Below are positions 1-44,298 of a DNA stretch of 64,000 nucleotides, one piece after another. Made by a program: the position numbers and the translations under genes. The stretch comes from Monosiga brevicollis MX1 (lineage: Eukaryota; Opisthokonta; Choanoflagellata; Craspedida; Salpingoecidae): the NCBI RefSeq assembly GCF_000002865.3, contig NW_001865041.1, forward strand, positions 917,793-981,792. The letters are read 5' to 3'. A model generated the notes under the pieces. It was not told the DNA's origin. It made no database searches and was given only the letters and a program-made list of their open reading frames with translations. Each line of letters starts with the position of its first letter. Within the stretch, counting starts at the first letter, position 1.

Positions 1-70
1 ACACCTGTTCAGCACGAATGCGCTCGTCTTCATCAACATCCAAGCATGGATCTGATGGCACCGCCGGTTC
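1..70 (-). repeat. C8 unit 9 (cut by window edge)
   Basis: SDPCLDVDEDERIRAEQV fits the opening of another C8 (PC...A). The frame is open at base 1, so the protein continues. Confidence 0.55.
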
Positions 71-3000
71 TTCAGGCGGCAGACAAATGTCTTCATGGGA
101 TCGGAACAGCTGCGAGGCAGCACCCGTGACGTTGACGACCGACCAACGGGCAGCCAAGGCAACACCATCCAATTCACCCGTCGTAGTCGACTGAGCGCCA
201 GCCAAACCGCACACCGAATCGGTGTATTGATCAGGAACCCAAACGGTCAAAATGCTTTCAATGGTCCACTCGACCACGACACCCGAAGGCAAGGTGGCGA
301 CAATGGTGCCACTGGCGGCGCGGCGCAAGGAGGTGCCATCCGGCAGGAGAGTCGGTAGAGTGCGCACGAGTTCACCGGCATAGTAGACAACACCTTCACC
401 CAGTTCCAAGGGAGGATAGCGCTGGTGCTTGACGGCAACAGCCTGTGTGTACACACCGTTGCTAGTGCTATTGCGATTGCGCACTTGCACTTCAAACTCG
501 GCCACACCTGCGCAATCCTTGACAAAGACGTAGTCGCAGACACCGCTTTGACTGAAAGTGGCGCTGTTCACCGTCACGTAATGTGGGTCGCCCCACACGG
601 TGGTGATGGAGTAGTCGTCGATGCATGTCTCGCCGTTGCCGTTGCAAACACCACACTGATCAATGATGGAGTTGACAGCCAAGGCCCGCCCGCCCGACGA
701 AGCGCGGCAGACGCTCTCGTATGCACTAAACAGGCCACAGGCCGCCACGCCGCCGGTTTCACAATAGTTGTCAATACAAGCATCGTACATGGCTGCTGGA
801 TCCACCAACTCGTGGCACGCAGCATAGGGGCCGTCGGCGTCAGAGAGCTGGGCGCAAAACGCCTGGGCATCCTCAAGCGTGGCAGCATCGCAGGTTGCAT
901 CTCCACGTGCTTCACAATTATCTCCCAACACCTCGGCAACGGTCACGTCGCCCACGACGCGCAGACGAGTGAGATCGTTGCAAGCGCCGTGAAGCGTGGC
1001 GCCTGTTGACAGTGAGGCAAGCACGGAGAGCTGGTCTTGATTGCGGTCATAGCTGATTTCCAAGCTCGGACGCATGACCGAGATGGAGATCAAGTTGCCA
1101 ACTTGCTTGAGCTGGCCAAAACCCAGATCAACTGACTGCTGAACCAAGGCTCCCCATTCGGTAAAGGCGCCTGTTGCATTGATCACGACACTGGTGTTGC
1201 CGGACACAACGGCAAAGCCGGAGAGGACCGAATCCACGACATCTACCGTGATCGCAAAGTCACCCAAGGCCACAATCGTGACGCTACAAGGTGATGCAAC
1301 GCCAAGCGCAGATGGGCCCCGCGATACAAGCACCCCCTGGGTCAACGAGCACGTCCAGGCGTCACATGCATCACCCGTGCCATAGCATTCGTCACAAGCG
1401 TCCACGACGCTGACAAAAGGCGCACTGGCGGCGGCGCAGGAGCGCTCGTAAGAACGTAGAACGTCACAAGCGGCAGCAGGGCCGATATGGCAGAATCGAT
1501 CCACGCAAACATCATAGAATGCTGCGCCCTCAACTTGATCGGCGCAACCGGCATATTGAGTATCGGCCGTGCCAATGAGTACGGCGCAGTAATCTGCTGC
1601 AGCAAGGGGATCGCATGGGCTAGGAGGTTCTGGGCTCACAGTGCACGGACTGTTTGCCATTGTCGTGTTGGTGGAGGCGTTGTGGCAAGCACCGCACGCG
1701 GGTGAGCGATTTGGCGATGTGGCCACGACCGCGGTGATGAAACCGTCATAGCGCAGCGAAAAAGACTGGCTTTCAAGCAACAGTTCACCATTGCTCTCAA
1801 AAAGCGAGACACCATCCACAATGGCCGGCAGGGCCGACAACGTCTGCCCATCAACAACCACCACGGCGCGGGAGAACTGAAGTCGGTCTCCGGCGGCCAC
1901 TAAAGTAGCCGGTGACGTGTACACGTTGTTGACAAAGGCTTCGCCGATTCGCAAGAGCGTGGCAGCTTGGTCGCGACTTACGCCCAGTAGGCTGGCCACA
2001 ATCCAGTCGACACGGCGACCGGCTTGATCAGCATTCACCATGTGAGTGCGACCCTGCAAGCGGATGACGGATCCCCCCTCAGTACGGACAGCGTAGGCCA
2101 TTGTCGCGCCACAAGCATCGCCAACAATCTCCACGCCCAACCCGGCTGCACAATCCGCCAGGAGGGCGACAGGGAAGCCGGCAGCCAAGTCATGCGGCGG
2201 CAGAACAATACGCTCCTCCACGGCGCGACACTCATCCTCAAAATCAGCCATGCAGTGGGTATTCACCAAGGATGCAGGCACCGACATGGCCACGCAATGA
2301 TCCACCAGCTGGGTCGCAAGAGTGCACGCGGCATCCTCGGAATCAGAGTGGCAAACAACCTGTTCGCAAGCGGCCATCATCGACGCGGCATCAAAGACAG
2401 CTAGACAAGCGTCAAGATAATCAGAGTCGAGGACAGCACAAGCCCCATTAGCCACAGCAGTTGCCGTGGTATTGGCACACGGCCCCACCGCACACGCGCC
2501 AGCAACACCACCAACTTCCTGGTCATCAAAGCAGAGGCCAGTGGCAGCAAGAGGCGCAGCAACGTTTAGGGTTGCCACGCCGTTTGCGATGCCGAGTCGG
2601 AGAGCATGGCCACGATGGTACAGCAGGGCATTGGCATCAGTGCCGGTAGAGCGCGCCTGTGCATACACATTGCCATCTGCACTGGTGTAGGTAAGATCAG
2701 CAGTCTGCGCACCTGCCAGAATGAGAGCAACACCCTGGTAGTTTGCCACGACGGTATCGTTCACGAGGAGGATGCTAAACTCTTCACTATCCTCAAACAC
2801 CACCGTGTCGCACGAGCCACGTGGCCACGGTGTGTTGCTAAAGGACACCACCAGGGATTCACTGGCCGTGCAGCTGCTAGTCGCGGTGGTATGTTGCGAA
2901 AAGCATGCGGCCTCTGTCAGTGAAGACGAAAAGTTGTTGATGCCCGCAGCCAAGCATTGTCGCTCATAAGCGCGCAGTGAAGAGCAGCTATAGCCGTTCA

Positions 3001-6000
3001 TCAGCGCACAGCTGTCCTGTAAGCAAGCCTCAGCAAATGGCGTGGGGTCCACGGCGGCATGACATGGTGCATAGCCACCGTCCACAGCCGTTAAGACGGC
3101 ACAGGCTTGATCCAAACGCTGGAATCGTGATACTTGCACAGTGTCACAAGCGTCAGACGAAGTTGCCGGGGGTGCATTGGCAATTTGGCATCGCTGAACA
3201 TCACTACTCCACAGTGTGACACTACCATCGGCATAGACTGCGATGTGCTCCGTCGAGTTATCGGTCATCAAATAAGCAGAAACGGCCGACGCAGTTGTTT
3301 CCACGTAAAGTTCACTGCTCAACCAGCCGGTTACACCCGACGCAAGGCGAACACCATTGAACACCAGAGCACCCGAGCGGAGAACTTGAATCTCGGAGCC
3401 ACTGAGAGTGAGACTGACCAGCACGCTGCTGGCTGGGCTCAAGGTCAAGCCATTGTTGACTTGCCACATCGTGCCCAGGTCAACGCGCGCGAAATCAGTG
3501 CCAGCCGCGAAGGTATCACCCGGCACAACGGAGCAAATGGCACTCTTGCACGACACACATGGGTCGCACATGTCGACAGCGAATGGAATGTCCTTGAAGC
3601 CGGCGGAAAGGCAGGAATCCCTGTAGGCGACGATGGCGGTGCATGGTAGGGCAGAGCCCAGGCCAGAGGACGTGTTGTCGGCCTCACACCAGAGGTGGAT
3701 GCACTGCTGGAGATAAGCAGCCGGGGATACATGATCACCGCATGCCTCCCAAGCATCATCCACCAACAGGCCCGAGCAATACTCAGTGGCTTCAGAGAGA
3801 GATGTAGCGTCGCACGTTGATGCTGGCGCGGGCGCGCAGAGGCCGTCTGGACCAACATAGGCGGCTGACAGTGTGCAAGCACCGCTTGCATCAAGACTTG
3901 GATCGGCACTAACGTGCAGGCCCTGCGTTGTCACTTGAACGAAAACGTCCAAGGCACTGAAACGAACAAGCGAGGAGGTAACGGCCTGAGCCATTGTGTC
4001 GTTAAGCACCTGGATGGCTGCTCCGAGCGTGGTATGCACGCCTTGGGCAACAGTGACATTATCCACCACAATCTGCACCAACGAAGCGTTGGCCAGCACT
4101 TGCCAAACGGAGCCATTGTTGGGCAAGCTCAGCTCATACAGCACTGAGATGCAAGCATCGAGCGGGCGCCAAGCGCGCTGAGCAGCAAATGTGGTAAAGA
4201 CATCGTCACGAAGCGTGCAGACGCCCAATGAATCCAGAAGATCATGGCATTGGCTGAGGTCACGATCACAGGGCCCGCAAGGCGCAAGCACATCGGCGGG
4301 CCCGTTAGAGCCAGAGCATGACGCCAACATGGTCTGCAGAGTTGAGCATGAACGATCAAGACCAAACGCGCAGATATCTTGAGCGCAAACACTGGCGGCA
4401 TCCACGGCCGTAACCGAGCACGAAGCAAAGTCAACGTCAGCAAGGAGGCTCAAGCATGTTTCGGCAGCATCTGCAGCCAAAGAGCCCGTGCACGTCTCGC
4501 TACTCAAATTGCGCGGTGGGCACAGGTTGCCATCCAAACAAGCACCACACAGGTGGGCAGTCGTGGCACCCGTCACCGTCACAGCTTCGGGCGCAACAAC
4601 GAGCGTGATTGCATCGAACAAATTGATGAGAACTTCGCCTTCGGAAAGATGGACCCAGCCAGCATTTGCGAGACTGGTCAGGCCTCGAGAGAGCGGGGCA
4701 CCATTGAGGTGGGCGGTGAGGTTAGCCGCCACCAAGAGGTGCATGTTGACCATCTCAAACAGCAAGGCACCATCCCGTTCTGGACGGGTGATGTTGAAGC
4801 GATCAGCGCTCGCATCGTCGGCACACAGCGAAAGTACACCAACGCCGCCTGCAAGACAATCCGTATCGATAATGCGCGAGGCAATCAGAGATGAGCCAAG
4901 GTACGAGCCCTCGATGCGGCACTCAAGCGCGTCGGCACAGGTGTTTTCGTCGCTGCAATCGGCACATGAAGGAGCTGTCACTTGAAGAGCCGAGTCATGG
5001 CTGGCACAGGCCAAAGCATACGCATTCAAGGCGCGGCACCCCATGCCACCCGCACAATGGTCAAAGCGACAGGAGGTTGCGAATTCGCCCACAGGTACGT
5101 TTGCAAAGCACGCAGCCAGAGGGCTCGTTGCGGAAGACAGCGCCGCACAAGGTCCCTGACCATCGAAACACGGCGGCTCAATGGGCTTGTCTACCGTGAG
5201 AGTGCACGATTCGGATTGCGCGGGAAGCACTCCGGTGCCCCAAGAGTTTACAACACTGAGGCGTGCAGCCGTCCAGGTGCTGTTGTACTCAAAAGCACGG
5301 CAGAAGCCGTCCATATTCGCAAGGCTGGCAGATGTTGCACTAACCATGACGCGGCCGTCAGGCGCGAGCACCACTTGCATTTCATAAGCCGGCAGATAGA
5401 CCACGGCTGAGAGGTTGACACGCATCACAGCCATTTCCAAGGTTGTGACGGGCATGTCCACAGGCGTGTCATCCAGGAGCAAAATGCCCTCGGACATGGC
5501 TAGGCGCTGGTTATTGATGATCACACCAGCGGCCATTTGCGGGTCGTCGGAACGCACCACGGCGTGAACCTCCATCGCATCATCATAGAGCATGCGGAGC
5601 GGGCACATGCCTGGGTAATGCACGTGCTCGCCATTGGTCAGACGAACCATGCCAGCTCCAAACGTCTGGCATGTCTGCTGGTTGTCGGCGCACATGGCCG
5701 ACGTCGAGCAGACATTGCAGTCGAACACAACCGACTCAAAATCCATGTGCCCGGCACCGATGCATGCACGCTCAAAGGCCTGCGTCACACCGCAGGCCGG
5801 TTCGATTGTTCGAGCTTGACACACCGAGGCCATGCAAGCCAGATAGAAAGCGGTACCATTGACGTCATTATCGCAACTTGCATAGTCAGTCAAGATGCGC
5901 TGGCAAGCACCTGCTGCCTCGGCAGCGCGCGCGGGATTGCTGCACGTTGGCACAATGACATCCAAGCCAGTACACGTGTCATCAAACACTTCTTCGGCCA

Positions 6001-9000
6001 AAGTATGGCCTTGAACTTGAAGGTCACTGTCATCCATGATCTCCGCACACATGCCGGATGAGGCACTGGCCAAGCTGGGGTGCACGTAGACCTCAAGACC
6101 AAGTTCGCTGGCAGTCAGCAAGACGAGGCCCTGATATAGGACGGCTTGCACCGACGCACCCACCACGCCAATGGCGTGATCACTGGACAACACCAGCGAG
6201 GCCACCGTCACAGGTTCAGATCCCACAGAAGCTTGACCCAGGTCATCAAAATCGATGGCTGGGCTGCCTGCCATATCAAGATGGTAGAGGGACCAGCAGG
6301 CTCCTGCGTAGCACGGACCCAGGTAGCCGCTCAATTCGAGAGCCACGGGAACGTTTAGCACGGTCTGGTTCAGCGACAGCAAGGGCACACCACACCGTCC
6401 AGTCAAACTCACAAGCGCGCCAGAGAGTTGTCGAATGTGTGACGATGGGAATACGGCGCAGCTCGAGTACGGGCCGTCATACACAATTGTGCGAGGCACG
6501 GGCGCATCACCATCTGCAACACAGCGGCCCATGACACCGTACGAGGCCTCACAGTAACCGCGCGAGACCTGTCCGATGAGGGTGAAGAGTTTGCCAGAGC
6601 TGGTGATGGTGAGCTTGAGTGAGTCGGGACCGCGCAGGATGTAGTTGTTGCTTGACTCACGCTCAAGCGTGTAGCCGGAGACAATGGTTGTGTTGCCCGA
6701 GGCAAACGCCGCCGCCGCAGCCTGGTCCCCGTCAGTGCCGACAAGCGACACGACAAGGGTCGAAGTGGCAACATCGATGGTGAACTCGAGAACACGACTG
6801 CCAATGCTCACCCGAACGTAGTTGGCACACGACGCCGTGGCTTGCGGGCAGCGCACCTGTTCGGTCAAGACGGAGAAGTACTGGTTGGGCGACAGCGTAA
6901 TGATGTAGCGGCCCTGCGAGCTAAACTTCTTTTGCTCGCCCAGCAAGTTGGCGTAGTAACCCTGCCCAAACATGGTCCACGTGTAGAGCACAGCCGTATC
7001 GCGTGACACGGTGAGTACACTGCAGTCATCGCCCGAGTAGCCTGAGGTGCAGACACTGCAATCAAGAGCACCCTGGAAGCGAGGCTCGCAGACGCAATTT
7101 CCACTTGCTTCCAAGCATTCACCGTGGCCGGAGCAGGGCTCCACGGCCCCACCACGACAAGCATCGGCACACTCATCACCATAATACCCATCGTGGCAAG
7201 TGCATGTGGAAGCGACGGAATCGGGCTCGCCCATGAAGCAACGCAAGTTGCAGTCAGTACCGTAGTAGATTGGGAAGATGACCGAGCCCTGAGTGTAGTG
7301 GTGGCAGAGGGGCGCAAGCGGCCAACTGGCTGTGGTGGGCACGAGGTCATCACAAACATCCGAGTAGACAATGGTTGCAATCATGCCGGGGTTCAATTTC
7401 GCCGCCAATGACACATCTTTGAGGCACATGTCACGGAAGAACTGGCGAATGGACGGTCCCATTGCGGAGCAAGCGGCGATGTGAGGCTGCGACTCGTTGA
7501 AGGCTGAACTGCAGAGCGCTTCGGCAGTCGAGCGCAGCGAGGTGCTGGACCACGTGGTGGTGTACAGCTCTTCTGTAGAAAGGTCTACCACGGTCAGCTC
7601 AAGCGTGCTGAAGGACCACTTGGGAGCGCGATACTCGGAGCTCGAAGGTAGGTACAAGCAGGGCGCATCGTATTCGCTATCTTCGCATGTAAAGGGGCTG
7701 ATGCGGTCGCGCACGTATTCACCTTGGCCAGCATTGAAGTTCCAGTATGCGATGAGACCATTTGAGTCCAGGCTAGGCGCGGTCGACCAGAGCTCGAGCA
7801 ACTCGGTCTGGTCGAGAGCGTAGTTCCACAGATGGGCCTCGTCAATGCTGCCGACAAATGGCACTGAAGCACTGTAGCGGCTAGGTTCGGTGGCCACGCC
7901 CAACTGACCGAAGGACAGGGCACCACCGGGCATGAACGGATTGCCCGTGAGAATGAGACTTTGAGAAGCAAATTCAGGCTGAACAGAGCCATCGGCCTGA
8001 GGCACACCAACGCTGCCCATAACGTAAACGGTGAGCGTGCCAGATTGCAGGTCGCTCGATGGGCGCCAGATCAGTACCACTTGGTTCCAATCGCCGACCT
8101 GCAGCTCGAGATCGAGCGGGGTCAGCCGCGAGTTCCACAACACATGCAAGCGATGCGCCTCAGGGTGTGTGCAGTCTGCGTCCTCCGCCGGGCACTCCGG
8201 TTCACCTACAATCGCAAAGACGCTTCGCGTGGCGTAGGACACAATAGGACCACCGTAGGATTCAGCCTGTACGTAGAAGTCCAGCGTGATGGCCTGCTCA
8301 CCAAAAATGTACAGAGCCTTGGAAGTGCATGCGGTGTTGTTGAAGCTGAGAGCGTAGAGCGACCCCAGCAATTCACGCTGCTCTCCATAGTTGCCGTAGT
8401 CGTACAAGACTGCAAAGTGGGATGCAAGGCGATTAACTCGATAGCGTGGAACGACGAGCTCATGGATGTTCTGCTGAGTCATATTGGTCGTGTAAAGATT
8501 GGAGACTGGAATGTCCGTGAGATAGTGCGTCGCGTTGATGGCAAAGTCGTTCGTGGGATCGCTGTCGCAATTGCCAAGAAGGCCATCAACTGTATTGCAG
8601 AGTTGTGAGGAAATGCGGAAGGCCACCGAAAGCATGCGACCCACAATACGCACGTGGAGGCGCGTTTGGGCGGTACGGATCGAGTATGCCTCAGAATCCA
8701 CCTGTTTGAGGGTCGAGCCATCGAAGCTATGTGCGTCCAGCTGTCCCTCCGAACCGATGGGCAGCGGCTCGCCATCGAGGAACACCAGTGGTGCGGCATT
8801 GACCACGTACGGCGCGCGAACCACCAAGACGTGGGCGGCCGTAGCATACGACACAGCTACGAGGCAGAAGGCCCGGGCACCGCAAGGGTTCAGACGTGCC
8901 TGAATCGTCAGGGTCGAACTCTCGTACAAAAGCAACTCGTCGGCGCCCGCGAAGGAAAATCCAGCACCGTCAAAGGTTGTAAAGCGCCCGTATCCGCTGG

Positions 9001-12000
9001 CCGTGAAGACGCGATATTCAGAGGCAGGGATTTCAGTCGTGGCGACACCGCAATCGTGGCCAATCCAGCCATCCGCACAAGCCGAACATGACGTGCGGTA
9101 AGGGGCCAAGGTCGAATTGTGCTGAACCGGGATGCGGTGATTGGGGTAAGTGTAGTCAAAGCCGACACGGTCTGAAACTTGCGATGGGCTGCCGTCGAAG
9201 TCTTGTGTATCATCGCCACTCCACTTGAGCTCACAAACACACTCACCAGTGGTGGTGTCGCAATAGCCGTGACCACTGCAGGCCAAGCCATTGGGACCAA
9301 CGGGGCAAGCGAAGTCGCAAGTTGGACCCCAGAAGCCCTCAAGGCATTGGCAAACCATCGGCTCACCGTTGCTTCCACCAGCCCTGGTAGTTGTCGTTGT
9401 CGTTGTCGTTGTCGTTGTGGTGGTGGTGGACGAGGAGACGCCCGGGCCGTTCTGGACGTCATCGTCAACATCCAGCTCGTTACGGTCATCTGCCTCATCG
9501 CAAGGCACCAACGCGACGAGGGCAGAGCTGAGGTCCACGCTCCGGTCGTAATAGTTGGAGTTCGGGTTGTTGAGAACCCAAGTGATGCGATCACCGTGGC
9601 CAATGTTCACGCTGAAGACGTTATGCACACGTCCAGGCATGAAGGCAGTCGGTTGGCCTAGATCGGACGCGGTTCGAGATGTGCTGGTTGTGGAGCTAGA
9701 CGAGGCGATAAACGGCGAACGTTGGTAATCGGAGAGGGTTGGCATAAAGCGGTTGAAAGCGCCGATCGCAATGCTAACAGACACTTCGTTCACATTCTCG
9801 TAGCCGAGCCAGACCTGGATGCCACTGGTCAGATTGCGGACGCACTCGACATGCGGTACAACGGGCAAGTAGTCCACACGTTCACTGACAACGCTGTCGA
9901 CGTTCTCATCATCCTCGACAGACGCCGTGGAGCCGGCGTTTGAAGCCAACGAGGCGGGCACGAGTTCGCCCTGACCGGCCTTGCAGCGCACCCCACAACC
10001 CTCATCGCCGTAATCATCGTGGCAGGTCGCACACGAGGGGTATTCCCAGCCCTCCTGGCAGATTGTGCAGCCTTCTCCTTCCCAATGACCGTTCACGCTG
10101 TCATCATAGCACCGACAGATGGCACCGTTAGGAACGGTGGCATACCCATGCTCGCAATACACGGAGCAGTCGTGTGTCGCCCAACCAATATAGTTGCGCT
10201 GACACACGGAGCAGCCGGTACCCGCGTAACGCGTGGCACACAGGGAGCAGTCGCTACCAGCAAACGAGTTATTGCACACGCAGGCCGGAACGCCGGTTGT
10301 TGCGGAGATGGCACAGACACCACGGCCCGAGCACGTCGGGGTGCCTGGGCAAACAAGATCCTCGCACGCCTCGCCCGTGTAGCCTGGGTCACATCGACAG
10401 ACCGGCCCAGAAGCACGATCCACGCAGCTGCCACGATTGTTGCAATCTGGCTCCCCGGGGCAGTCGACCTGACCACACAGGGGGCCCTTGCGTCCTTCAC
10501 GACAGATGCACTGCCGGTTGGACAGATCAATGCCGAGCCCAGGAAGCGGGGAGATGGCGTTGTCGTCATCCTCCACAGCACTATCCTCAACCGACAAGCG
10601 CAGAGTCAAGTCGGCCAGGCGCTGCAGCGCACATAAATCTGGAACTGTGATGACTGCACCGGTGACGTTGTTCTCAAACACGTACACACCAACGGCCAGC
10701 CAGGCTTGCTCACCGGCAACAAGACCAACGGTACCGTTGCTGGCTGCAAGCTGCACCGCCACGCCATCACACATGGTGGCCGCAGCCCGACACACGTCCG
10801 TGTCACGCGCCACCACCCCGTTGAAGGCAAAAGCAGAACCATCGTACGTCAAGCGGGGTGAGACATGTGGCCACAGGGCCAGGACAGGCGTTGGTTGCGT
10901 GGTCGTAGTGGCGCTCGGGGTGGTGCTTGATGTGCTCGCGGGCGTGGAGCCAGTGGCCGTGGTCGCGCTTCCGGCTGTCGTTGTCGTAGTGGAGCTGACC
11001 GCAGGAGTTGGCGCTTGAGCCGCATACTCAGCAATCATGGTGGCAAGGAGGGGCGAGCATACATCGGCTGCATCAGGAATAGTACAATTGGGGCCACTCC
11101 AGCCCGCTGCACAGCCCCCACAGGTCGGGCCGACAATGTTGTCGTTGAAGCAATAGCAAGTGGCTTCGGCTTCGGTACCGTTGCGGGCGCAGAGACCGCG
11201 ATTGTGACAATCGTCGCTGCAAACAAATGTGGCACAATTGTCACCCGCAAAGCCAGGCTCGCATTCACAGTGGGGAAGGTCATCTCCGTTGTCCCAGACA
11301 CACGTGCCATGCGCCGAGCAATTGTTTGCACAGTCAAACTCGGTGCAGAATGTGCCAGTCCAACCAGCAGCGCAGCCGCAGGTACCCTCACCGCCACATT
11401 CGACATCGCAGTTAGTGCCGCTGAAGCACGGGTCACAGACACAGATGCCTGAATCCATTGGAACTTGGTTGCCATTGACACAGGGTTGGTCACATGACGT
11501 ACCCATCCAGCCCTTGGAACAGTTGACGCAGATGGGGCGGCTGTAGGCCTCATCTGGATCGCAGTCTCCGCGTGCATTGCAATCAGGTTCGCCGGGGCAG
11601 TCGGGCGTGTTGCAATCAACCCCACGCCAGCCAGGATCACAACGACAAACCTGTTCCTCCGGATTGCAAGTACCGTGGCCCGAGCAAGATTCGCCGACGC
11701 CCGGGCAGCCACGGATACCACAGCGCTCGCCCCACCAGGCTGTGTCACACTCACAGCCACCGTTGACGCAGGTGCCATGGTTGGAACATTCGCGCGTGCA
11801 CGACGGGCCATCAAAGCAGATGGCGGGCTCACATTCGCAAATGCCAGAGTTCATAGGGAATTGCGTGCCGTTGACGCAAGGAAGTTCGCAACCGGGACCC
11901 ATCCATCCTGCCTCACAATTGATGCAAGAGGGCGGGTCGTAGAGTCCGGTACACGTGCCACGACCCAGACAGTCAGGCTCGCCGAAGCAGTCAGGCACTG

Positions 12001-30000: not shown

Positions 30001-33000
30001 ATGTTGCTCCGCCGTCGACAGTCACAAGACCGATGCCAGCAAAGCGAGTAGAAATCTCGAGGTCCAACGCGCCACCGGCGCCGGCACCGGCATTGGCGAC
30101 CGAAGTGGATGCTCCTGAGGCATCGAGAGTACCATCCACGATCAGCGTCGACGCGTTGATGTAGCCAAAACCGCCACCCACACCTCCGTTGTAGCCACGG
30201 CCACCCGCTCGACGAGGGGCAAACATGCTGTCCACGCCGGGTGCGGCGTCGAGCGAAGCACGACCGCCCAGTGAAGCGTGAGTGCCACCATTTGCAAAGG
30301 AGTTTTCAAACAAGCCATCCACTTCTGAAGCGGCCTGGTAGACACGCACATCGCCGTCCAAGCGCAAGGAAGCGGCTGTCTCGACATCAAGAAGATTCGC
30401 GGCCAGTTGCAACCCATCTGCTTGAACCTCGGCACCGAATTGCAGATCAAACTCTCCAAACGCACCAATGAGGCTCAGGCCATCGGCCATCTGTACTGCC
30501 GCGTTTGCTTGGGCGACAAACTTTGTCAAATCGATTCGACCGCGTTGATCTGAAGCACTACCACAGCTTTGCGACGTCGTAGTCGTGGGATACAGGTACA
30601 GCAAACGGCCAGCACCGACCGTGATTTCTGAAGCACCCTCGATACAACCATGCCAAGCAAAGGAAGACTGTCCCAGGTAGACATACTCCATGGGGAGGAC
30701 GAGTGTGCCGTTCTCCTGCAAATGAAAGTTCAGATCGGATTGCGTGCGATCCACCAGCGTGTCGATTGTCCAACGGTCGCCCGGACGAACGGACACCTGC
30801 TCGTAACCAGAAGTTGTGACCTCGCCCACAACGGCAGTACCTGTCTCATGCATGAAAGAAATACTGGCCTGTCCGGTCAGCGCTAGCGTCCGCACATCTA
30901 GAGTGGCATCCATAATAGGATAGACGACAGACCACGAGTGGTCACTGTTGTCAATCGCCAAGCGCTGGCGCACCTCGCCGTAGACAACCTCGTGTACAAA
31001 GACCGACCCAGGACCACCATGCTGCGCGACGCTGGCACCGGAGCCGCCGAGGGCCTGTAGAGTACCAGTAAACGCCAACGCAGAGGTAGTGTGCACGTAC
31101 ACACGACCACCGCTTCCAGCACCCTGGTTCGAAGAGTCGGCGCCATCTGCCGAGATGGTGCCACTGCCAGCCAGAGAGGGGGCAGTGATGATCACACTGC
31201 CGCCGCTACCACCTGGAGAACCGGACACGGACACGGCACTGGCGTCAAGGGTACCATCAAGGATCACTTGCTCCGCGGAAACGTGAACCAGGCCACCACC
31301 CAAACTGCTGCCAGCCGCGAAACCGCCGGTATGACTGGGCGCGTGATGTGAGTCTGGAATCAACTCATGATCGGCTGAATTGCTCGAGCCGCCAAAGCTG
31401 GCGTGCGGTGCACCCGCGGAGCCAGTGGTAATGCTGGCCGCGACAGTGCCTTGAGCAGTGACCAAAGCTTGCGCCTCGACCGTCAGAGCACCGGCGACAA
31501 TGTAAATGCGCTGCGCAACCAGGGTCACGGCGCGCTTGATCTCAAGTGCACCAATGGCAAGAGAGGCGTTGCTGAGCAGGTTCAGGGTGCTGCCCGTGTG
31601 CAGATCCAACGCTGAGAATGATACAACGCCAGCGTCCCCGTGCGTCGTGTACGCAATTTCGCTGTAACTCGAATTGAGACTGTTCATGCCTGAGCGAACG
31701 AAGGAAGACCCATATGTCAAGACGCCGGCTGCCGCGATTGTCACAACGTCGGCGCCCGTGAGACTGCCCTGAATATCCAGGTGGTGGTCCTTGACAATGA
31801 GTGTTGAGGGCACAACAAGCTCGCCACCAAGTGCCACGGTGACATCGATGTTTGTCGTGTAGCTACGTGGAACCAGTTGATTCCATGTGAGCCACGCGCG
31901 CTGCCCTGCAGCAACGGCGAGCACGGAGCTCGAGTCGGTATCAATGGCATCCACGTGGAATGTGTCGCCGTCAAACTGAAGAGAGATACGGTTCAAAAGC
32001 TCAAACTCGTCAAAATAGAATTGGCTGGTGGAAGAATCAGTCAGACGGACCACGGGCAAATTGCTGGCGGTTTGTCCGGCATCAATCAGCAAATAACGGT
32101 ACTCATCGTCTCGAAGATTCTCAGCAAAGACGACGGGGCCGGGTGCCCCAATCAAGTTGCGCTCGGCGTCGTAGCCGCCAAAGGCCAACATTTGACCGCT
32201 GAATGCAGCATCGACTTGAGTGTAGACTGCAATGCGCCCGCCAGATGAAGGGCGTCCGGTACCCGCACCGCCCTTGGCGGTCAAGATACCCGAGCCTTGC
32301 AGGTCGTTGGCTTCAATGAGAATTGAGCCGCCCGCACCATCCGCCGCATCGACGGTGATTGTGCCATAGTTTTCCACCGTGCCTGAGGAAGAAATGTAAA
32401 CCAAGCCGCCGCCACGTCCGGCCCAGCCAGCACTGCCAGGTAAACGTGGCTCCAGCATATCGCCAGCTGTGCACACCTGGCCGTAGCCATACCCGCCATG
32501 GCTGGCACCTTCAGAAGCGGATGCCGCATCGCAAGGGCCTTGGCCAGCGGCATAGCCACCGTTCTCAGCCCGCACAGCAGCACCTGCCATGATGGAAAGC
32601 GAGCCGCAAGCAATGCTGATGCGCTCTGCCTCCAGACGAGAGTCAACGCTCAATGTCAAGGAGGCTGTGGACATGGCAATATGGGATGGGCTCGCCACGT
32701 CATGCGAAGCAAGCGGTGGCGCTGCAATGATCAGCGCCGCGCGGGCCTTGACGGCGATTGATGTGATGTCCACATTGTATGGATCCGTGACATCGCCGTA
32801 CCCGTTGGCCTCTGAATAGGTTGCAAAACGAGTCGTGTTGACGACATAAAAAGCTGTATCGGCAAGGACAGTCAGGGCCTGAAGGTTGGTAATGAGACCG
32901 CGCAGGCGGGTGGCATCACCACTAAAGCCAGTGCGTGGAGGGACACGGAATTCAGCGTCTCCATCTTGCTCTACGCTCACAGGGATGATCGTCATGGCAG

Positions 33001-36000
33001 CGGTGTTGGCAGCCGAGTCATCAATGATAAACACGAGGTCGTCATCCACACGCAGGGTGGCGCTGGCATCGCCCAAAATGGCGTCTACCGTAACGCGCTC
33101 GGTCGTTTGCGTATTGAATGCAACAACCGCGAGGCCACCAATCTCCAACGTGTTGAGTACAATGGCAGACGTGGTGCAATCAAGCACGGTGTTGCCAGAA
33201 ACTTGATTGGCAACATACAGGTTTCTGCGCGTCGCGATCCCCTCGCGATACGTTATGTAATGCGTGCCTGCATTTGTACCGTGCACATTCATTGTGCCCT
33301 CAAAGCGATTATGGGTGGTTTCAACAACAATGCGACCACCGGCATCAGCGACGGCACTGACGTCCATCAGGCCTGCTCCTGAAATGCTCGTGGTGGCAAC
33401 AGCCAAGAGGCCACCAGAGCCCGCGGCCGTGCCTTGACGAGCCAATGTACCGTCCAACGTCAGAGAAACAAAGCTCAGGTCGAGCACGCCCCCGTCGAAG
33501 AGAACCGCACCCGACGGGGTTGTCGTGGCATCGGAGAAGCAAACCGAGGAGCGCACAGGAAGCACTGACGGCGCATGGGAAGTCAGTAGACCGCCATACT
33601 CAATGCCAAGCGTCACGCCGCTAATAAAGGCGTTACCAACCTGAAGGGTGCCGGCACTAGAAATCAAGATCTCATCCGCGTCAATAATGACAGGATCGCC
33701 ATTGTTGACGCCCTCAAAGGTCAGAACCGCATCGCTGCCAACGTCAAGCTTTGAGAAAGTAAAATTGCCGGGCAAATCCAAAAAGTCGTAATTGCCGACG
33801 CCATCACCCAAGGCTGTGTGGGCGGTGGAAGAGAGAATCACGGAGGCACCAGTGCTCAGAATCAGCTCGCTGGCACCGTTGAGCAAGCCTTCAATGATGA
33901 CGGATGGGACGCGCGAGGTGGCTGCTACTTGCACAATCTGTGGCAGAACAACTTCGGCATGAGCCGCACCCTCGAGGGCAAAAGGAACCTGGAGCGGGGC
34001 AGCGGCAGCTGCACGCGAAGCTTGGAGATAGGCTGCGGTGTTGTTTACCAACAAGGAGCCTGAAAAGTCACCCACGACGCGCTGTGCACTCAAAATGCCC
34101 GTGCCCAGAAGGACCACACGCGAGCCACCCTGAATTTGCAGGAGCTCAATGGTGGTGACGCCGGTGCCCTCCACAGTGATTTCTGTTGCCGCCTCCACGC
34201 CATCAGCCTCGCCAATGACAAGAAGCTGGCGCTGGAAGAGACCAACGACGTTACGTTCCACGTAAACAGTACCACTGGCACCAGCTGTGGCACCTTGGCC
34301 ACCACCGGGGGCCTTAATGGTGCCAGAAAAGGCGGCCATGTCCAGGGCCAGAACGCTCACGCGCCCACCAGCAGCACCATAGTTGGAGCTGGTCACGGAA
34401 CCACCTTGCGCTTCAATGTCACCGTGGCCGCGCAAGTAAGGCGTAGTAATCGCAATGCTTCCACCGCTGCCAGCGCCGCGGGTAGCAGATGCACCCTCGA
34501 CGCTGATGCGACCGTTGAGGACAATGTTCTCACTGCTTACAATCGACACGCGACCACCGCCGCGGGCTTGACCAGGCACACCCGACCCGAACAGAGCTGG
34601 GGCGCGGAAGTCCCCATAAGGGCTACCCGCGCCAGTGCCTGAGCCATAGCCACCGAAACCAGCGCCAGCATCAAGACCAGCGACGCCCGGTCCTTCAGTG
34701 AGACCTTGATAATCGGCATGCAAGACCGCGCCATCATTGATGGCCACCTCGCTGGCCTCGATCACAATGGCAGTGCCGCTAGCAGACGATGCCCGCAAGA
34801 CGGCCTCGGTTCCAAGCGTGAGGGAGCCAACGGTGATGTTGGCGGCGGGCATGATTAGAATCATTTCAGCCCGCAGGGCCAGGACCAGCTCGTCAAGCAC
34901 CACGGGGACCGCCGAGAAAGCTTGTCGTGCCGCAGGGGTCTGGATATGGCCACCAGCCTGCTGTGTCAACTGGGCACCCTCGCCCACGTGAAGCGAATCG
35001 GTCTGAATAACGCCATCGGCAGCTACCGCCACCTCAGTGTCGGCACCCAGGCGAAGGCCTGCTGCTTGAAGCATGCCGTGCAGTTGCAGAGGATTGCTTC
35101 CTGCGAGCACCAGATTGGCGCCCAATGACAGTAATGTAGTGCCAGAAGTCAAAAAATTGATGCCACACCAGCCATCGGCACACGTAACAATGGACAGCTG
35201 GCGGTCTGAAACGTCTAGCGAGCCTGTGCCATCACCGCGGAGCATGCTGATGGTGGTCACATTGTTGATCGCCACATCCGCACGTTCCGTTACGATAAGG
35301 GTTGTCAAGGTGCTGTCGAAAGATGCTGGAGCGTTAATTCGCGTCTTCCCAGAGCCACCCACGGCCACAGTGCGCAGAATGCCGTTTGCAGTGTGGGTTT
35401 CGTAGAGGGCGACACCCGGACCAGCCGTTGCATCGGGTGCCTTCAGGGCGAAGACAAAGTTTTGATCGCATGCGGCAGTGCCGTTATGACAGAGCACATG
35501 AACACGACCACCCGAGCCGCCGTACGAAATGCGTGTGCCGCTGTAGCCAGCACCGCCATTGGCCTGCAGTGTGCCTGTACCTTGCACGTGCTCCGCGCTG
35601 ATAAAAATGGAGCCACCTGAGCCACCGCCACGCATGTTTGAGCCCGACGCACCGTCGGCATGCATGAGGCCATTATGCTCAAAAAGCCCAGCCTGAATAG
35701 CAATGACGCCGCCGCCATAACCTCCGTTGCGACCACCCCGGCCACCAAAGGACGCGGGTGCTTCAAGCGTGCCAAAAGGCTCCAGGTTTTCCCCAAAGCC
35801 ACCGTACACACCACCATAAGCGGTGTACTGGTCCGAGCCAAGCGAGTCAAATGTACCCTCACCCTCGGTGGCAGTGCCCACGGCCTCCGCAACGACCGTT
35901 GAGTCGATGTGAGTGATGAACGTATTGGCCTTGACTTGCACGATACCCTCGGTGGGCGAAGATTTGAGAGTCAGCGTCGAACCTGCGCGCAGCTCAACTG

Positions 36001-39000
36001 CATCATATTCATAGGTTCCACTTGTGAGGTAGCAACTCTCACCGGCGTACAGCGTGAATCCCACTGAATTGTCACACGAGATAGAGTATGTAATGTTCCA
36101 AAACGTCAGTGTGTGGGGGACCAGGTCTGTCTCTGTCCAGCTGTAAGATTGATTCACCCAAACCTGCTCTGGAACGACCCACTCATCGGCGCGCGCATCC
36201 ACGCATGTTTGCAGGTCTTCACATTCCTCGCTGACAATGGCCTTGGCAGTCTCGTTGGCGACGGAGGTGTTGTAGGTTACCATGCGGTAGCCAGTATGAA
36301 CGGTATTGACAGGTACCATGTACTCCAAGGTGTACGTGTTGTTGCGCTCGTCGACAATGGGATCGCCATGACGGCACGGATTGTATGGCACGTGGGAGGC
36401 GTTGTCGTGGAGCACCAAGCCCACTGGGCAGGGCTGATCAACGATCACGGCAAGACATTGAGCGTCCACGCATGATGCCTCATCCGTGTGTTGCTCACAC
36501 GTGCGAGGTTGCCAGTCATATGAGAACACCGGATCGTACACGGTTTGGTTGATGCAGTTGTGCAGCTCCGAGACAGTGGCATTGCGACACACTGTCTCGT
36601 CACAAGAGGCAGAGGTGGAATTACACGTGGTGCCGCGGGAGCAAATGAGTTGTGGTTGCTCGGGACAGTCTGTCTCAGAATGAACCTCGTTGATGGGTTG
36701 GTCCTGACAACCACAGACTTGACTCTCGGCATGCCAGAAACATCCTCTCTCCGTGGCAAAGCCATCAGCTTCATTGATCACAGCATCGTCATCCGCGCTA
36801 GGAGCCAAAAAGTCTTCAAAGGCGAAGGAACCACCATACTTGATGACAAAGGAGCTGGCCTGAATGCCCGTTTGCTGGATGGCTTTAGTATCCACTGATG
36901 CGAAACGCTCGATGGTGAAAGAGCTCGCGTACAAATACCCAGCGGATGCACCCGACGCTTGCTGCAGGGTGTGTGCCAATTGGAGAATGCTGCGTTCCCC
37001 AACAACCACTGAAGTAGTTGCAGAGATGCCACCCGCAAGGATCCAAGTAGCGTCGGAGATGACCAAATTTGATGGCACAACTAGAGAGCTACTCGCAAGG
37101 GCACGAAGAGACAGGCTCACCGCAGCCGATTCGGTGATGCGAAGCGCATGAGATGCGGCAAGGTATAGACCACCGGTACCGTCACCCAGCGCTTTTCGCG
37201 TAGCAATGGCCAATGCGCTGCTGGAGGATTGGCCAATGGCCACCACATATGAGCCACCACTGATGTTGAACGAGTCAAAATCGTAGTTTTGCTCCCGCGT
37301 GCCAGGCAGCGTGGTGCTGCCGTACACCAGCACGGTTAGTGGACTGGGTTCATCCAAAAGGGAAGCGATGTTAACCTTGTCCTCTGACAAGCTTCGTTGG
37401 TCTGGACGGCCGCGATTGTTGATCACCAGATCATCTTCGACCGTGGCATCGGCTTGCTTGGCCCGACGTAGAACCATGCCGGCCGCGCCGCTCTGGTAGC
37501 CTACTCCACCAACGGCTTCAACAGCTCCGTCAAAGCTACTGGTTGTAACCGTGTACTCCAGACAAACAAGTCCACCAGCGCCACCGCCTTGTAGGCTGGT
37601 GCTTCCAGCGGTCCCGCCGTTTGCACGAATCAGGCCGGAACCTGTCATCGTAGGGGCAACGAGATGCAAAGAACCGCCAGCGGCACCGCCAGCGCCGACG
37701 ACAGCACCCTGCCCATCAACCTCGATCAAGCCATCGATGTTCAGGGTCGTGGCGGTCACGCGCAAGGCACCACCACCACGAGTCAGGAACTGACCGCTAC
37801 CGCAACCAGGCGCACCGTATGTGCGGGGACGGAAAACGTTGCCAAAGGCCGCAAGAAAATCGGCACCAGGATCGCTGCCGCGGCCACCATGGCCACCATG
37901 ACTACCACCCTGGAATGCACAAGAAGAGGCGTCTGACAAGAACGACAACGCAACGGGCTGTTGAGTTTGCGCCGACAAGCGGCCATCTGTGTCAACCGTC
38001 ACAGTCGTGGCAGAGATGGACAGGTTCAAGGCGGTCAGCTCAGCCCGGGTGTCGATGGTGAGCTCAGTCAACGTCAACCTAGACGCCGGCCCCAACATGA
38101 GACACTTGGATTCGTAGCCGAGCTCTAGCGTGGTCAACGTGTGGGTGTTGGCTGTGCCAGCTCCGCCATTTGACGTGATGCTCGAACCGGCTTCACCGCG
38201 ATAAACGGCGTAATACATGGAAAGATCCGAGATACCAGCCAAGACACCTTGGTTGATGATGCTGGTGCGGAACATGGTAACGGTCTCAGGCAGAGTCAAA
38301 CGAGCCCCTGCGGCAATGCGCGCAGAAAGAGGAATGTGCTCTTCAGTATTGACCACCTCGACCGTGACTTGGGATTCAAGGACAAGGTTCGGGTACAGTG
38401 TAGGAAGAGTCGAGCCTTGCAGCATCACGACTTCCACCGACGCCGCTGAGCCGGTGGATGAACGGAGCAAAATTTGGCCGTTGTTGATGAAGGTCGCCGT
38501 ACTGAGCGTGAGAGTAGCGTCAGCAAGAAGAATGCCCGTGCCAAAGCTCACCATGCTCTCATCAGTCAGGTTGACTGCCAGACCATTCGAGTCGACAAGG
38601 AGCTCGGAGGTAGCGCGATACGCATCGCTCACAAAGATGGTGCCTGCAGCTGAGGTTCCGGCGCCATGAGCGCTCGTGGTACCGGTAAAGGTGAACCCAG
38701 GACAGGCCACGGCACTTGCGCACGAGACACCCTCTGCGATGTGAATGGCCAGGCGACCACCAGCACCACCTTCCCAGCCAACTCCAGCGCCACCATTGGT
38801 AGTGAGAGCGCCTGACCCGGCCACTGTAGTCGCAGCCTCGATCAGCAAGCTACCACCGCTACCGCCAGCACTCGTACCACTAGCGGCACCGCCATTGGCG
38901 GACACAATGCCGTGAATCGTGGCCGAGTTAACTTGCAGATGCAGCAAGCCACCCGCGGCTCCACCAGCGCCGGAAGCGCCATCCGCGCCGCGGCTGCCCA

Positions 39001-39960
39001 ATGCGCCAGGCACCTTGAAGTCGCCGTACGGTGCGATGAAGCTGCTGGTGCTGGACATGCCGGTGCCTCCATGAGATCCGGCACCCGTTTCCGAGTAACC
39101 CGAGCCCAAGTACTCATTCGTAGCCACAAGACGCACCGTGGCGCCCTGATTGACGGTGAGGTTGGAGGCAATCAGATGCAGAGCATTTGCTTGCAAGCTG
39201 GCGCCGCTGTACAAATCTACCTCGAGGGTACGTAGAACGTGCAACTGGTCGCTGGTGTCGAAGCGAACAGCACCACCGCCCCTTACCACGAGCGTATCGA
39301 TGGCAGTTTCACGATTTGCCATGGCCGAAGCGATGCGGAAGTGGGCGTTTCGTCCCACTTGAAGCTCACTCATTGACGTAAAGGCGCCGCGTACATCGAC
39401 TTGGACACCCTGCAACAGTGTCGAAGCAGGGAGAGTCAAGGTCACGTTGGCTCCAGTATTGATACCAAAGGGGATGGCTTGCAAGTCTGAATCAGCTGCA
39501 AAGCTGAGGTGCGTGCGCTGTGATGCGTGAATCACGCCCGAAGAGTCTCCCTCCGGAGCACTGTACGCGCACGATGCCTCGTGATCCAATGCACCAACAA
39601 GCATCAGCTCGCCCAAACCCTTGATCTCCAAGGTATCAAAGGAGTTACATTCTGTGTGCGAAAGGACAGCCAACGACGAGGCGAGGGCCAGGTCCAGGGC
39701 TTCGTCGCGAGAACGCGATACGAACTTGGCCTTGTTATCAACAACAAGGCGTACCTCGGACGCTGACTTTACCAGCACAGAGCCAGGGCCACCCGCTGTG
39801 CTGTAGGTTTTACCGCCAGACGCGTCATACGACCCGATGAAGGCAAGCACGCGTGTGTCGATTGCAATGCGACCACCACCGCCAGCACCACCCTGAGGTG
39901 TGTTAGTGACGGCAGTTTGGAAGCCATCACCACCCCGCGCCGTGATCATGCCAGCACCAT
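1..39960 (-). CDS. Exon 7 (39,960 nt, 3' partial): modules M13-M30, EGF array, VWD/C8 array
   Basis: One reading frame (codon starts at coordinates leaving remainder 1 on division by 3) stays open from the intron 6 acceptor to base 1: 13,319 complete codons. I checked the frame against recognisable protein at about a dozen points (39,958, 36,010, 32,953, 30,019, 25,984, 22,060, 19,018, 16,102, 9,382, 5,056, 2,044 and the window edge) and it never shifts. Seventeen further Gly-rich modules lead into about 50 EGF-like repeats, Ser/Thr linkers, VWD, a pentraxin-like domain and nine C8/VWD-like units. The exon continues outside the window. A cryptic in-frame intron cannot be excluded, but no domain shows an interruption. 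Confidence 0.93.
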
Positions 39961-42900: not shown

Positions 42901-44261
42901 CAGAGTATGAGCCACTGAAGCCACTAATATCCCCTGCTGCCAACAAAATGCGTCCACCGCTGCCGGCTCCACCAGTGAGCAATACGTCGGTGGAATGCAC
43001 CACAGGTACGCCACCATTGGCTTGGAAGAGGCCGTTACCGGCGAGCACGGTAGCATTGACTAGAATGGAACCGCCAGCACCAGCACCACAGCCGCCCAGC
43101 CCACTGCCGCCGTAGCCATTCACGGACAACGAGCCGTCATGTTCAAAGCGCTGTGCACTGATGTGGATGATGCCACCACCATAGCCGGCGATGCAGTTGA
43201 AACTTGCCGACGCTGGCTCACCTCCACCTGAACCAAAGTCAGAGGGGTTCATGATGTCGCCATACGAGTCACTGGTCAAGTGATTGAGCACGGACGAACC
43301 ACCGCGACCACCGAAACCACCTCCAGTGCCACCAACCAGGGCAGCGACGCCCGAGCCGTGACCAGCGCCGGCCCCCTCTTCTTGTCCGTATCCCATGTAG
43401 TCAGCATGCAAGCGACCAAGAGGATTGACGGTGAGATTGACCGTTTCCAAGAAGATGTTGATGCCCGTTAAGACGGCTTGACCTGACACCAGCGTATTTT
43501 GGGTTCGCAGGACACGTCGGTCCCGCCCGTTGCTGATGTTGACTTTGGAGTAAGCGCGCACCTCGAGGTCGTCGAATTCGAAGCGCTCGGCGACTGAACC
43601 GTTGGGATAGACCTGATCCAAAAGGTTCAGGTTTGCGCGGTTCGTTACCTGCATGTCACCAGCGTTGGTCAAAGCGCCCTCGAGATTTACTGTCACGCCT
43701 GAGATGACGGCTTCACCATCCATGGCAATCTCGCCGCCACGATAGACGTCCAAATTGAAGTTGATGAGATACTGTCCGCTGAGCGTCAAGTACTGGTTGA
43801 AGTCAATGTGCATTTTGCCAGTGCCGTCGCTTGCAAGCTTTTCTACGCCTAGCGTGATGCGGCCAGTGTCTGACTCAGCCCGAAGGGCAAGATTGCTTGT
43901 CCCGTAAATGTGGATTTCTGTCATAGACAATGTGTCTCCATCCTCGGTAAAGATGTATGAGACACTTGAGACGTCCTCCACGTCGGTGGCCAGACCACTC
44001 GTGTTCTTTGCCAGTCCATAAGGTCGCTGATTTTTGTTGTTCAGATACAGGGTCGTGTTTCGCCCGGCGCTGGGATCGGTCGAATTCACGGCAGAGTCGA
44101 TGAAGAGCGTGCCTGACGCTCCGGGCTCGTGAGGCCCATAACCTAACATGAGCGCGAAAGCGGAGACATACAAACAAATGAGACACAAAGAAACCTGCAC
44201 AAAGCACTCAGGCAAGACATATTGCGCGTATACCCAGGGAGATAACATGAAAGCACGATCT

Positions 44262-44298
<37 letters not shown>

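What the first reader, a model, noticed from the sequence alone, without database searches (positions are those of the whole stretch)
1..39960. A 39,960-nt stop-free coding exon that runs off the window
From the intron 6 acceptor to base 1 a single minus frame stays open for 13,319 codons. It reads recognisable protein throughout (Gly-rich modules, EGFs, VWD, C8), and I found the same frame at about a dozen checkpoints. ORF callers that require a stop miss it and report only shadow frames. An unbroken 40 kb coding exon is larger than the giant exons I know of in animals, such as those of titin (about 17 kb) or MUC16 (about 22 kb).
Basis: partly seen in the sequence, partly recalled or inferred. 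Interest (0 to 1): 0.93.

Follow-up and report, generated by a model that had tools for sequence, protein, structure and literature searches.

The report
Giant exon of a repeat surface protein
A single coding exon of about 40,000 bases, part of a gene that fills the whole window and encodes more than 21,000 amino acids, spells a huge repeat-built protein that looks secreted and adhesive; it is real and unusual, but coding stretches of this length are already known outside animals.

Summary
The minus frame with codon starts at 39958 down to 4 has no stop in 13,319 codons, and the exon begins at 39960 behind a good acceptor. No internal intron is visible: none of 306 candidate in-frame introns scores intron-like. 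The gene is larger than stated: seven exons and six short introns form one frame of 63,197 coding nt, 21,065 codons, with both gene ends outside the window. About 30 tandem modules of 360-450 aa come first. One is predicted with confidence as an almost all-beta fold (pLDDT 91), most like beta-solenoids, without a significant structural match. Its glycine-rich half weakly matches the NCBIfam AgmC model of gliding bacteria in 10 of 25 copies; 0 of 5 reversed controls match. Teneurin-type EGFs, then VWD and C8 domains follow. My reading: a secreted, fibre-like adhesive protein of a unicellular eukaryote, perhaps a choanoflagellate; the species is unknown. The record claim fails for eukaryotes at large: Cryptosporidium CpPKS1 is a 40-kb intronless ORF (PMC2995488). 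Bases 7-1 read CAG|GTGT, so the exon may end at the window edge.

The parts
1..39960 (-). Exon 7 of the window's gene model: stop-free coding exon, 39,960 nt within the window, open at base 1
   Evidence: Translation without stop; acceptor at 39961; coding statistics; no intron-like candidate among 306; possible donor at base 4
39961..40056 (-). Intron 6, 96 nt, phase 1, GTAAGT...TTTTTAG; it interrupts a module, not a module boundary
   Evidence: module segments E6 1065-1362 and E7 1-63
40057..44142 (-). Exon 6, 4,086 nt, three modules, the third completed in exon 7
44143..44338 (-). Intron 5, 196 nt, phase 1, holds a (GT/AC) dinucleotide run
44339..62595 (-). Exon 5, 18,257 nt, stop-free, ten modules in its 3' three quarters
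62767..62827 (-). Exon 4 (61 nt; its acceptor is uncertain, exon starts at 62812 and 62896 also keep the frame)
62934..63548 (-). Exon 3, 615 nt
63680..63749 (-). Exon 2, 70 nt
63853..64000 (-). Exon 1 as far as seen, with the Gly-rich end of a further module (by eye); the gene runs off the window upstream
16322..39958 (-). 17 tandem modules of about 360-450 aa plus the tail of one that starts in exon 6; some are split by inserted domains; predicted almost all-beta, solenoid-like
   Evidence: HMM segments; model of one module from exon 5
26519..27481 (-). Inserted PQQ/BamB-like domain (propeller family), below Pfam cut-off
   Evidence: PF13360 E 1.6e-5, 25.2 bits against a cut-off of 27.6; aligned with three others
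21917..22852 (-). Second related insert in exon 7
   Evidence: 33% identity to the copy at 19952-20833; only a weak DUF6923 hit
19952..20833 (-). Inserted PQQ/BamB-like domain (propeller family), at the Pfam cut-off
   Evidence: PF13360 28.7 bits against a cut-off of 27.6 on its own, 26.0 bits within a larger piece
49737..50495 (-). Related insert in exon 5
   Evidence: 25% identity; no Pfam hit of its own
9050..16300 (-). Cys-rich stretch of EGF repeats of the teneurin type (PF25024, PF23106, PF07974), limits approximate
   Evidence: 49 CxC..G..C signatures in the whole translation
8543..9001 (-). VWD domain
   Evidence: PF00094 E 1.4e-9
7559..8500 (-). Stretch with a sub-threshold Laminin_G_3-like match
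   Evidence: PF13385 E 3.4e-4, 21.2 bits against 27.6
2..6058 (-). C8 domains with VWD-like stretches between them (by eye), ending in a VWD domain (197-601) close to the window edge
   Evidence: PF08742 above cut-off in four of four pieces, PF00094 E 2.1e-13; about eight C8-like Cys patterns by eye

Best explanation
The stretch is one real giant coding exon, part of a gene with more than 63 kb of coding sequence in a nuclear genome with short spliceosomal introns. It encodes a very large secreted or surface-bound protein. The first part is a tandem array of modules, each probably a beta-solenoid, that may form a long stiff rod, with propeller-like and Cys-rich domains inserted into some. A stretch of EGF repeats and a VWD/C8 region follow, which in known proteins (recalled) form disulphide-linked multimers. 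It most likely works as a fibrous adhesive or matrix protein that holds cells to each other, to a surface or to prey. Shown: the frame, splice sites that keep it, the repeated module, the domains. Predicted: the beta-rich fold. Inferred: the solenoid and rod, secretion, adhesion, multimers, and a unicellular relative of animals as the source.
For: No stop in 13,319 codons and a strong in-frame codon signal. Six introns with GTNNGT donors and TAG or CAG acceptors join into one frame of 21,065 codons. None of 306 candidate GTNNGT...YAG frame-preserving introns in exon 7 scores intron-like; the best is -0.06 bits per codon, while 5 of the 6 inferred introns are positive in all frames and the sixth in two of three. 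36 HMM segments merge into about 30 modules across exons 5-7. Module model pLDDT 91.4, pTM 0.90, almost only beta strands; the two best Foldseek rows are the EtpA secretion domain and the third is antigen 43, beta-helix proteins by recall. EGF_TEN, EGF_2, VWD and C8 pass Pfam cut-offs. 233 N-glycosylation sequons against 147 expected from composition.
Against: No RNA or protein data; the six introns are themselves inferred. Signal peptide, any anchor, start and stop lie outside the window. The source is not identified. No relative was confirmed in bacterial or archaeal genomes, viral contigs, plasmids or phages. Structural matches are weak: none at E below 0.001, top two rmsd about 10 A, TM at most 0.37. 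In the two-module model the linker is of low confidence, so a continuous rod is not shown. 1.15% of 66-codon windows score below zero against the intron model; they form ten regions, four in the EGF part, five in the VWD/C8 part and one in a Cys-rich insert. Eleven places have 19-residue hydrophobicity of 1.6-1.79, borderline for a membrane helix; they look like beta strands to me, but a membrane segment is not excluded.
Confidence: 0.7

Rival explanations
1. The frame is coding but not one exon: one or more short introns whose length is a multiple of three and which hold no in-frame stop lie unseen inside it.
For: Intron-like sequence of 96 nt is stop-free in a given frame in 42% of 4,000 simulations, so about 14% of such introns would be invisible to a stop test. 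Two of the six inferred introns have lengths divisible by three, 171 and 96 nt. Intron 3 looks coding in one frame, without a stop. Ten stretches of exon 7, mostly in the EGF and VWD/C8 parts, score below zero against the intron model.
Against: 0 of 306 GTNNGT...YAG candidates score intron-like. 17 modules fill 24 kb of the exon, apart from inserts. The scan covered only that donor form, YAG acceptors and lengths of 58-400 nt.
Confidence: 0.16
2. Two or more transcripts share this open frame, for instance an internal promoter or polyadenylation site separates the solenoid part from the EGF/VWD part.
For: The domain content changes sharply near 16,300 from modules to EGF repeats. Nothing in the DNA demands one transcript.
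Against: No stop and no frame change at the join; two genes would normally be separated by a stop.
Confidence: 0.08
3. Assembly artefact: repeat copies joined or multiplied wrongly so that the length is inflated.
For: The region is a tandem array, the class of sequence that assemblers handle worst.
Against: At DNA level the copies are old: the ten direct-repeat families listed are of 42-55 nt at 60-78% identity to their reference copies; Tandem Repeats Finder lists 7 rows, none longer than 46 nt; the 25 modules compared share at most 45% of residues. Such copies are not easily confused by an assembler.
Confidence: 0.03
4. A decayed or unexpressed giant gene.
For: No expression data.
Against: A neutral frame of this make-up would soon gather stops: in 100 shuffles no open run exceeds 1,056 nt. 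21,065 codons without a stop argue for selection.
Confidence: 0.03

Closest known systems
Cryptosporidium parvum CpPKS1, 40-kb intronless ORF (PMC2995488 passages; PMC4053351 passage)
   Same: Uninterrupted eukaryotic coding frame of about 40 kb in a unicellular organism
   Different: A putative polyketide synthase; intronless as a whole; none of the domains seen here, as far as the passages tell
Giant ORFs of Omnitrophota bacteria (PMC10066038 passages)
   Same: Tens of thousands of codons without interruption; some with discoidin and laminin_G_3 domains; adhesion or predation proposed
   Different: Bacterial; predicted membrane helices; few annotated domains
Monosiga brevicollis teneurin (PMC6297184 passages)
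   Same: Extracellular EGF repeats in a choanoflagellate, nearly all of the extracellular part on one large exon of a four-exon gene; bacterial origin proposed
   Different: Third exon given as 6829 residues; [quoted passage not shown]
AgmC of gliding bacteria (NCBIfam NF047640)
   Same: Its N-terminal model matches the Gly-rich half of modules, 10 of 25 at E up to 0.1, best 2.8e-8
   Different: Best 33.2 bits against a curated cut-off of 275, so no member of that family; the gliding function is known here by the model's name only
Titin, MUC16 and other animal giant exons
   Same: Large coding exons
   Different: Shorter by those figures; other domains (recalled)

Membership tests
Giant coding exon (single uninterrupted frame) | No in-frame stop over the stated length | tested here: met
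   13,319 codons, 0 stops
Giant coding exon (single uninterrupted frame) | No introns inside, shown on RNA | not testable with these tools
   Sequence test only: 0 of 306 candidates intron-like
Giant coding exon (single uninterrupted frame) | Both exon ends known | tested here: inconclusive
   Acceptor at 39961 seen; other end at base 5 or beyond base 1, with CAG|GTGT at the edge
AgmC (NF047640) | Score above the curated cut-off of the N-terminal model | tested here: not met
   33.2 bits at best against 275 in the ten modules
Beta-helix / beta-solenoid proteins | Stacked coils of parallel beta strands | tested here: inconclusive
   Confident, almost all-beta model; I saw strand positions, not the coordinates; top Foldseek rows are beta-helix proteins by recall, but best E 7.7e-3, rmsd about 10 A, TM at most 0.37
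G8-domain proteins | G8 model above Pfam cut-off | tested here: not met
   18.4 bits against 22.9 in exon 6; 1 of 25 modules at E 0.18
Teneurins | Teneurin-type EGF repeats | tested here: met
   PF25024 E 2e-62
Teneurins | YD repeats and RHS core | tested here: not met
   No such Pfam hit in the 20 pieces or the 10 inserts; exon 5 was scanned only in part and the gene runs on outside the window
VWD/C8 multimeric proteins (mucin, von Willebrand, SCO-spondin type; names recalled) | VWD and repeated C8 domains | tested here: met
   VWD in two pieces and C8 in four pieces above cut-off
VWD/C8 multimeric proteins (mucin, von Willebrand, SCO-spondin type; names recalled) | Disulphide-linked multimers | not testable with these tools
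   Needs protein
Choanoflagellate origin | Sequence match to a named choanoflagellate genome | not testable with these tools
   The collections I could search are bacterial, archaeal, viral, plasmid or phage; no whole genome is held for the window

The most novel reading that the evidence does not exclude
A unicellular eukaryote took up a bacterial AgmC-like surface module and multiplied it to 30 or more tandem copies with almost no introns. Joined to EGF, VWD and C8 domains, it became a secreted fibre of more than 21,000 residues for attachment or prey capture. Its last visible exon, once followed past base 1, would exceed CpPKS1 and be among the longest coding exons known in any eukaryote.
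Probability: 0.22. Interest if true: 0.78.

Novelty: new variant of a known kind. Interest (0 to 1): 0.55.

Why it matters
It suggests that a gene built of homologous modules can grow to tens of kilobases with hardly any introns: 6 introns in 63.2 kb of coding sequence, about 0.1 per kb, against 4.9-8.7 per kb reconstructed for ancestors on the lines from the last eukaryotic ancestor to ichthyosporeans and animals (PMC5560861 passage). The array then grew by duplication within an exon and not by exon shuffling (inference); intron 6 falls inside a module, and intron 5 seems to, by eye. It also offers a candidate new domain family: no Pfam family matches more than 1 of 25 modules, best E 0.0067, with a faint bacterial link. 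And it is a test case for gene callers, which miss the exon when the frame runs off the sequence.

Tried and rejected
Relatives: searches of genome contigs and viral contigs with one module or small alignments gave 23, 61, 2, 470 and 104 pattern matches but no tblastn-confirmed relative. These searches reach close relatives only, so they do not show absence. tblastn of one module against plasmids and phages found none. A profile search of solved structures gave only weak hits (best E 0.029).

AgmC link: 10 of 25 modules match at E up to 0.1. In a second call on 10 chosen modules 7 matched at E up to 1 and 3 did not. Five reversed Gly-rich fragments gave no match to any family. Against it: one module also matched chaperonin GroEL models, E down to 0.00099, which I take for chance, so E-values of Gly-rich modules must be read with care. 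I could not follow the link in bacterial genomes: no genome handle was available. Papers: of 51 found, 12 were listed, none with the word AgmC; of 82, 12 were listed, none on gliding by title or abstract.

Fold: the two-module model is of middling confidence (pLDDT 72.4, pTM 0.63) and does not settle whether modules stack into one rod. An earlier pair alignment was dropped because overlapping pairs aligned a shared module to itself. A first regular-expression count of modules (2, 0 and 3 matches) was too strict and was replaced by the HMM.

Discoidin-like reading of three Cys-containing inserts (49328-48867, 46238-45702, 42841-42263) was dropped: no discoidin hit in Pfam, 22-26% identity to each other's first member. 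Pfam coverage is incomplete: exon 5 was scanned only for 62498-59499, for three inserts and through the modules in alignment A1; exons 1-4 were not scanned.

Membrane helices: an earlier script used a cut-off of 1.9 and found none; with 1.6 there are eleven borderline places, so I do not claim their absence.

Literature: I cannot claim that no longer exon is in print. Searches gave listings (5 of 5, 20 of 45, 5 of 5 and 20 of 49 papers) with no survey of exon lengths that I could recognise. PKZILLA (recalled as larger still) was seen only in passages that do not give exon structure. PMC4054682 held none of four terms. PMC11573180 was seen as abstract, one section and passages.
Full report
WHAT WAS CHECKED. 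4 contain no stop in 13,319 codons, and the window has no undetermined base. The longest stop-free run in the window is this one (39,967 nt with the intron tail), followed by 18,552 nt and 4,323 nt, both on the same strand. In 100 shuffles of the exon the longest run averaged 687 nt and never passed 1,056 nt. The exon starts at 39960 behind ...TGATTTTTAG; the donor before it is TTGA|GTAAGT.

THE GENE IS BIGGER THAN THE FINDING. Reading upstream, six introns of 96-196 nt join seven exons of 148, 70, 615, 61, 18,257, 4,086 and 39,960 nt into one frame without a stop: 63,197 coding nt, 21,065 codons, about 2.19 MDa. The introns are inferred from splice signals and frame, not from RNA. Donors are GTCAGT, GTTGGT, GTACGT, GTAGGT, GTAAGT, GTAAGT; acceptors end in TAG or CAG. 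The acceptor of exon 4 is uncertain, since three of five tested AGs keep the frame. Neither the start nor the stop of the gene is in the window. At the edge the sequence GAACAGGTGT leaves open that the exon ends at base 5, with 39,956 nt. ARAGORN finds no tRNA and Rfam no family above its gathering score in the window.

IS IT ONE EXON? A codon model trained on exons 5 and 6 alone gives a median of +34 bits per 66 codons in this frame and -46 and -61 in the other two. Against a model of the six introns, 1.15% of 66-codon windows fall below zero, in ten regions: four in the EGF part, five in the VWD/C8 part, one in a Cys-rich insert, all with a codon make-up unlike the training exons (the last remark is my inference). 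A direct scan took all 172 GTNNGT sites in exon 7 and all YAG sites 58-400 nt downstream at a distance divisible by three: 306 pairs, best score -0.06 bits per codon, so none favours an intron. The six inferred introns, each scored with the other five as model and with stops counted as zero, gave positive values in all frames for five, and in two of three frames for intron 3. The coding model in that scan included exon 7 itself, which favours coding somewhat. Because about 14% of intron-like 96-mers would be silent in a stop test, a hidden intron is unlikely but not excluded without RNA.

WHAT IT ENCODES. An iterated HMM from four neighbouring repeats finds 36 segments, which I merge to about 30 modules: ten in exon 5, three in exon 6 (the third finished in exon 7) and 17 in exon 7 (one weak segment of 8.4 bits dropped, five split modules counted once). 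Among the 25 modules aligned, neighbours in order are 22-45% identical, mean 30%, against a mean of 26% for the others; 0 of 2000 shuffled orders reach the observed neighbour similarity, as expected of old tandem duplication. DNA copies are diverged, which also argues against assembly error. One module of exon 5, with 25 modules as its alignment, is predicted at pLDDT 91.4 and pTM 0.90, almost only beta strands. Of 85 Foldseek matches in the PDB none reaches E 0.001; the best rows are the EtpA secretion domain (E 7.7e-3, rmsd about 10 A) and antigen 43, and many of the 50 rows shown are pectate-lyase-like or tailspike proteins, beta-helices by recall. So a beta-solenoid is the likely class, but this is not proven. 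A two-module model repeats the strands of both modules, with a poorly predicted linker and overall pLDDT of 72. Some modules carry inserts: four related propeller-like domains, one of which passes the PQQ_2 cut-off when scanned alone (28.7 against 27.6 bits) and not within a larger piece (26.0), and Cys-containing stretches. After the modules come teneurin-type EGF repeats (EGF_TEN E 2e-62), then VWD and C8 domains. N-glycosylation sequons are enriched, 233 against 147 expected. Eleven places reach a 19-residue hydrophobicity of 1.6-1.79, borderline for membrane helices.

FAMILY LINKS. No Pfam family matches more than 1 of 25 modules, best E 0.0067; seven of the eight exon-7 pieces before the EGFs had no Pfam hit at E 0.01, the eighth had the PQQ_2 match. 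The NCBIfam model of AgmC, named there as an adventurous gliding motility protein, matches 10 of 25 modules with E down to 2.8e-8 over the Gly-rich half, far below that family's cut-off (33.2 bits against 275); 0 of 5 reversed fragments match. One module also matched GroEL models at E 0.00099, a warning about Gly-rich sequence. This is a lead to a bacterial ancestry of the module, not membership. The choanoflagellate teneurin gives a precedent for a large extracellular exon with a proposed bacterial source (PMC6297184 passages).

WHOSE GENOME? Not shown. Short spliceosomal introns and EGF, VWD and C8 domains speak for a eukaryote, by recall one close to animals or an animal; GC is 57.4% (from the base counts). 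That short introns with this GC suit choanoflagellates is recalled, not tested. My estimate for a choanoflagellate is about one half.

IS IT A RECORD? Not among eukaryotes on present evidence. CpPKS1 is a 40-kb intronless ORF, and a bacterial ORF of 39,678 aa is in print. A survey counts more than 41,000 proteins of 5000 aa or more in UniProt (abstract and one section of PMC11573180), so size alone is not novel.

HOW IT PROBABLY WORKS. A rod of solenoid modules, a Cys-rich EGF stretch and a VWD/C8 part that may link chains by disulphides: a secreted fibre for adhesion or matrix. The order of parts is shown; fold stacking and function are inferred from domain classes.

VERDICT. It is a new variant of a known kind, the giant repeat-coding gene, with an unclassified module and extremely few introns. 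It deserves follow-up by transcript data and by finding the organism.

Noticed in passing
44263-44296: A (GT/AC)17 run lies inside intron 5, a possible marker for variation between individuals.
   Followed up: no
13339-16359, minus strand: A shadow open frame of 1,006 codons overlaps the EGF repeats on the same strand in another frame; it is the longest of the four false ORFs of 300 aa or more listed inside the giant exon.
   Followed up: no
49737-50495, 26519-27481, 21917-22852, 19952-20833: Four related propeller-like domains are inserted in or between modules at different places of the array.
   Followed up: partly
36017-36817: A Cys-rich insert of 267 aa without any Pfam match splits one module.
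   Followed up: partly
59499-62498: The first 1,000 aa of exon 5 have no Pfam match and only one weak module-like segment; they may be strongly diverged modules.
   Followed up: no
1-64000, translated gene: Lysine is very rare in the encoded protein (0.9%, 190 residues against 871 arginines), as are the codons AGA, ATA, AGG and TTA (7, 8, 14 and 19 of 21,060).
   Followed up: no
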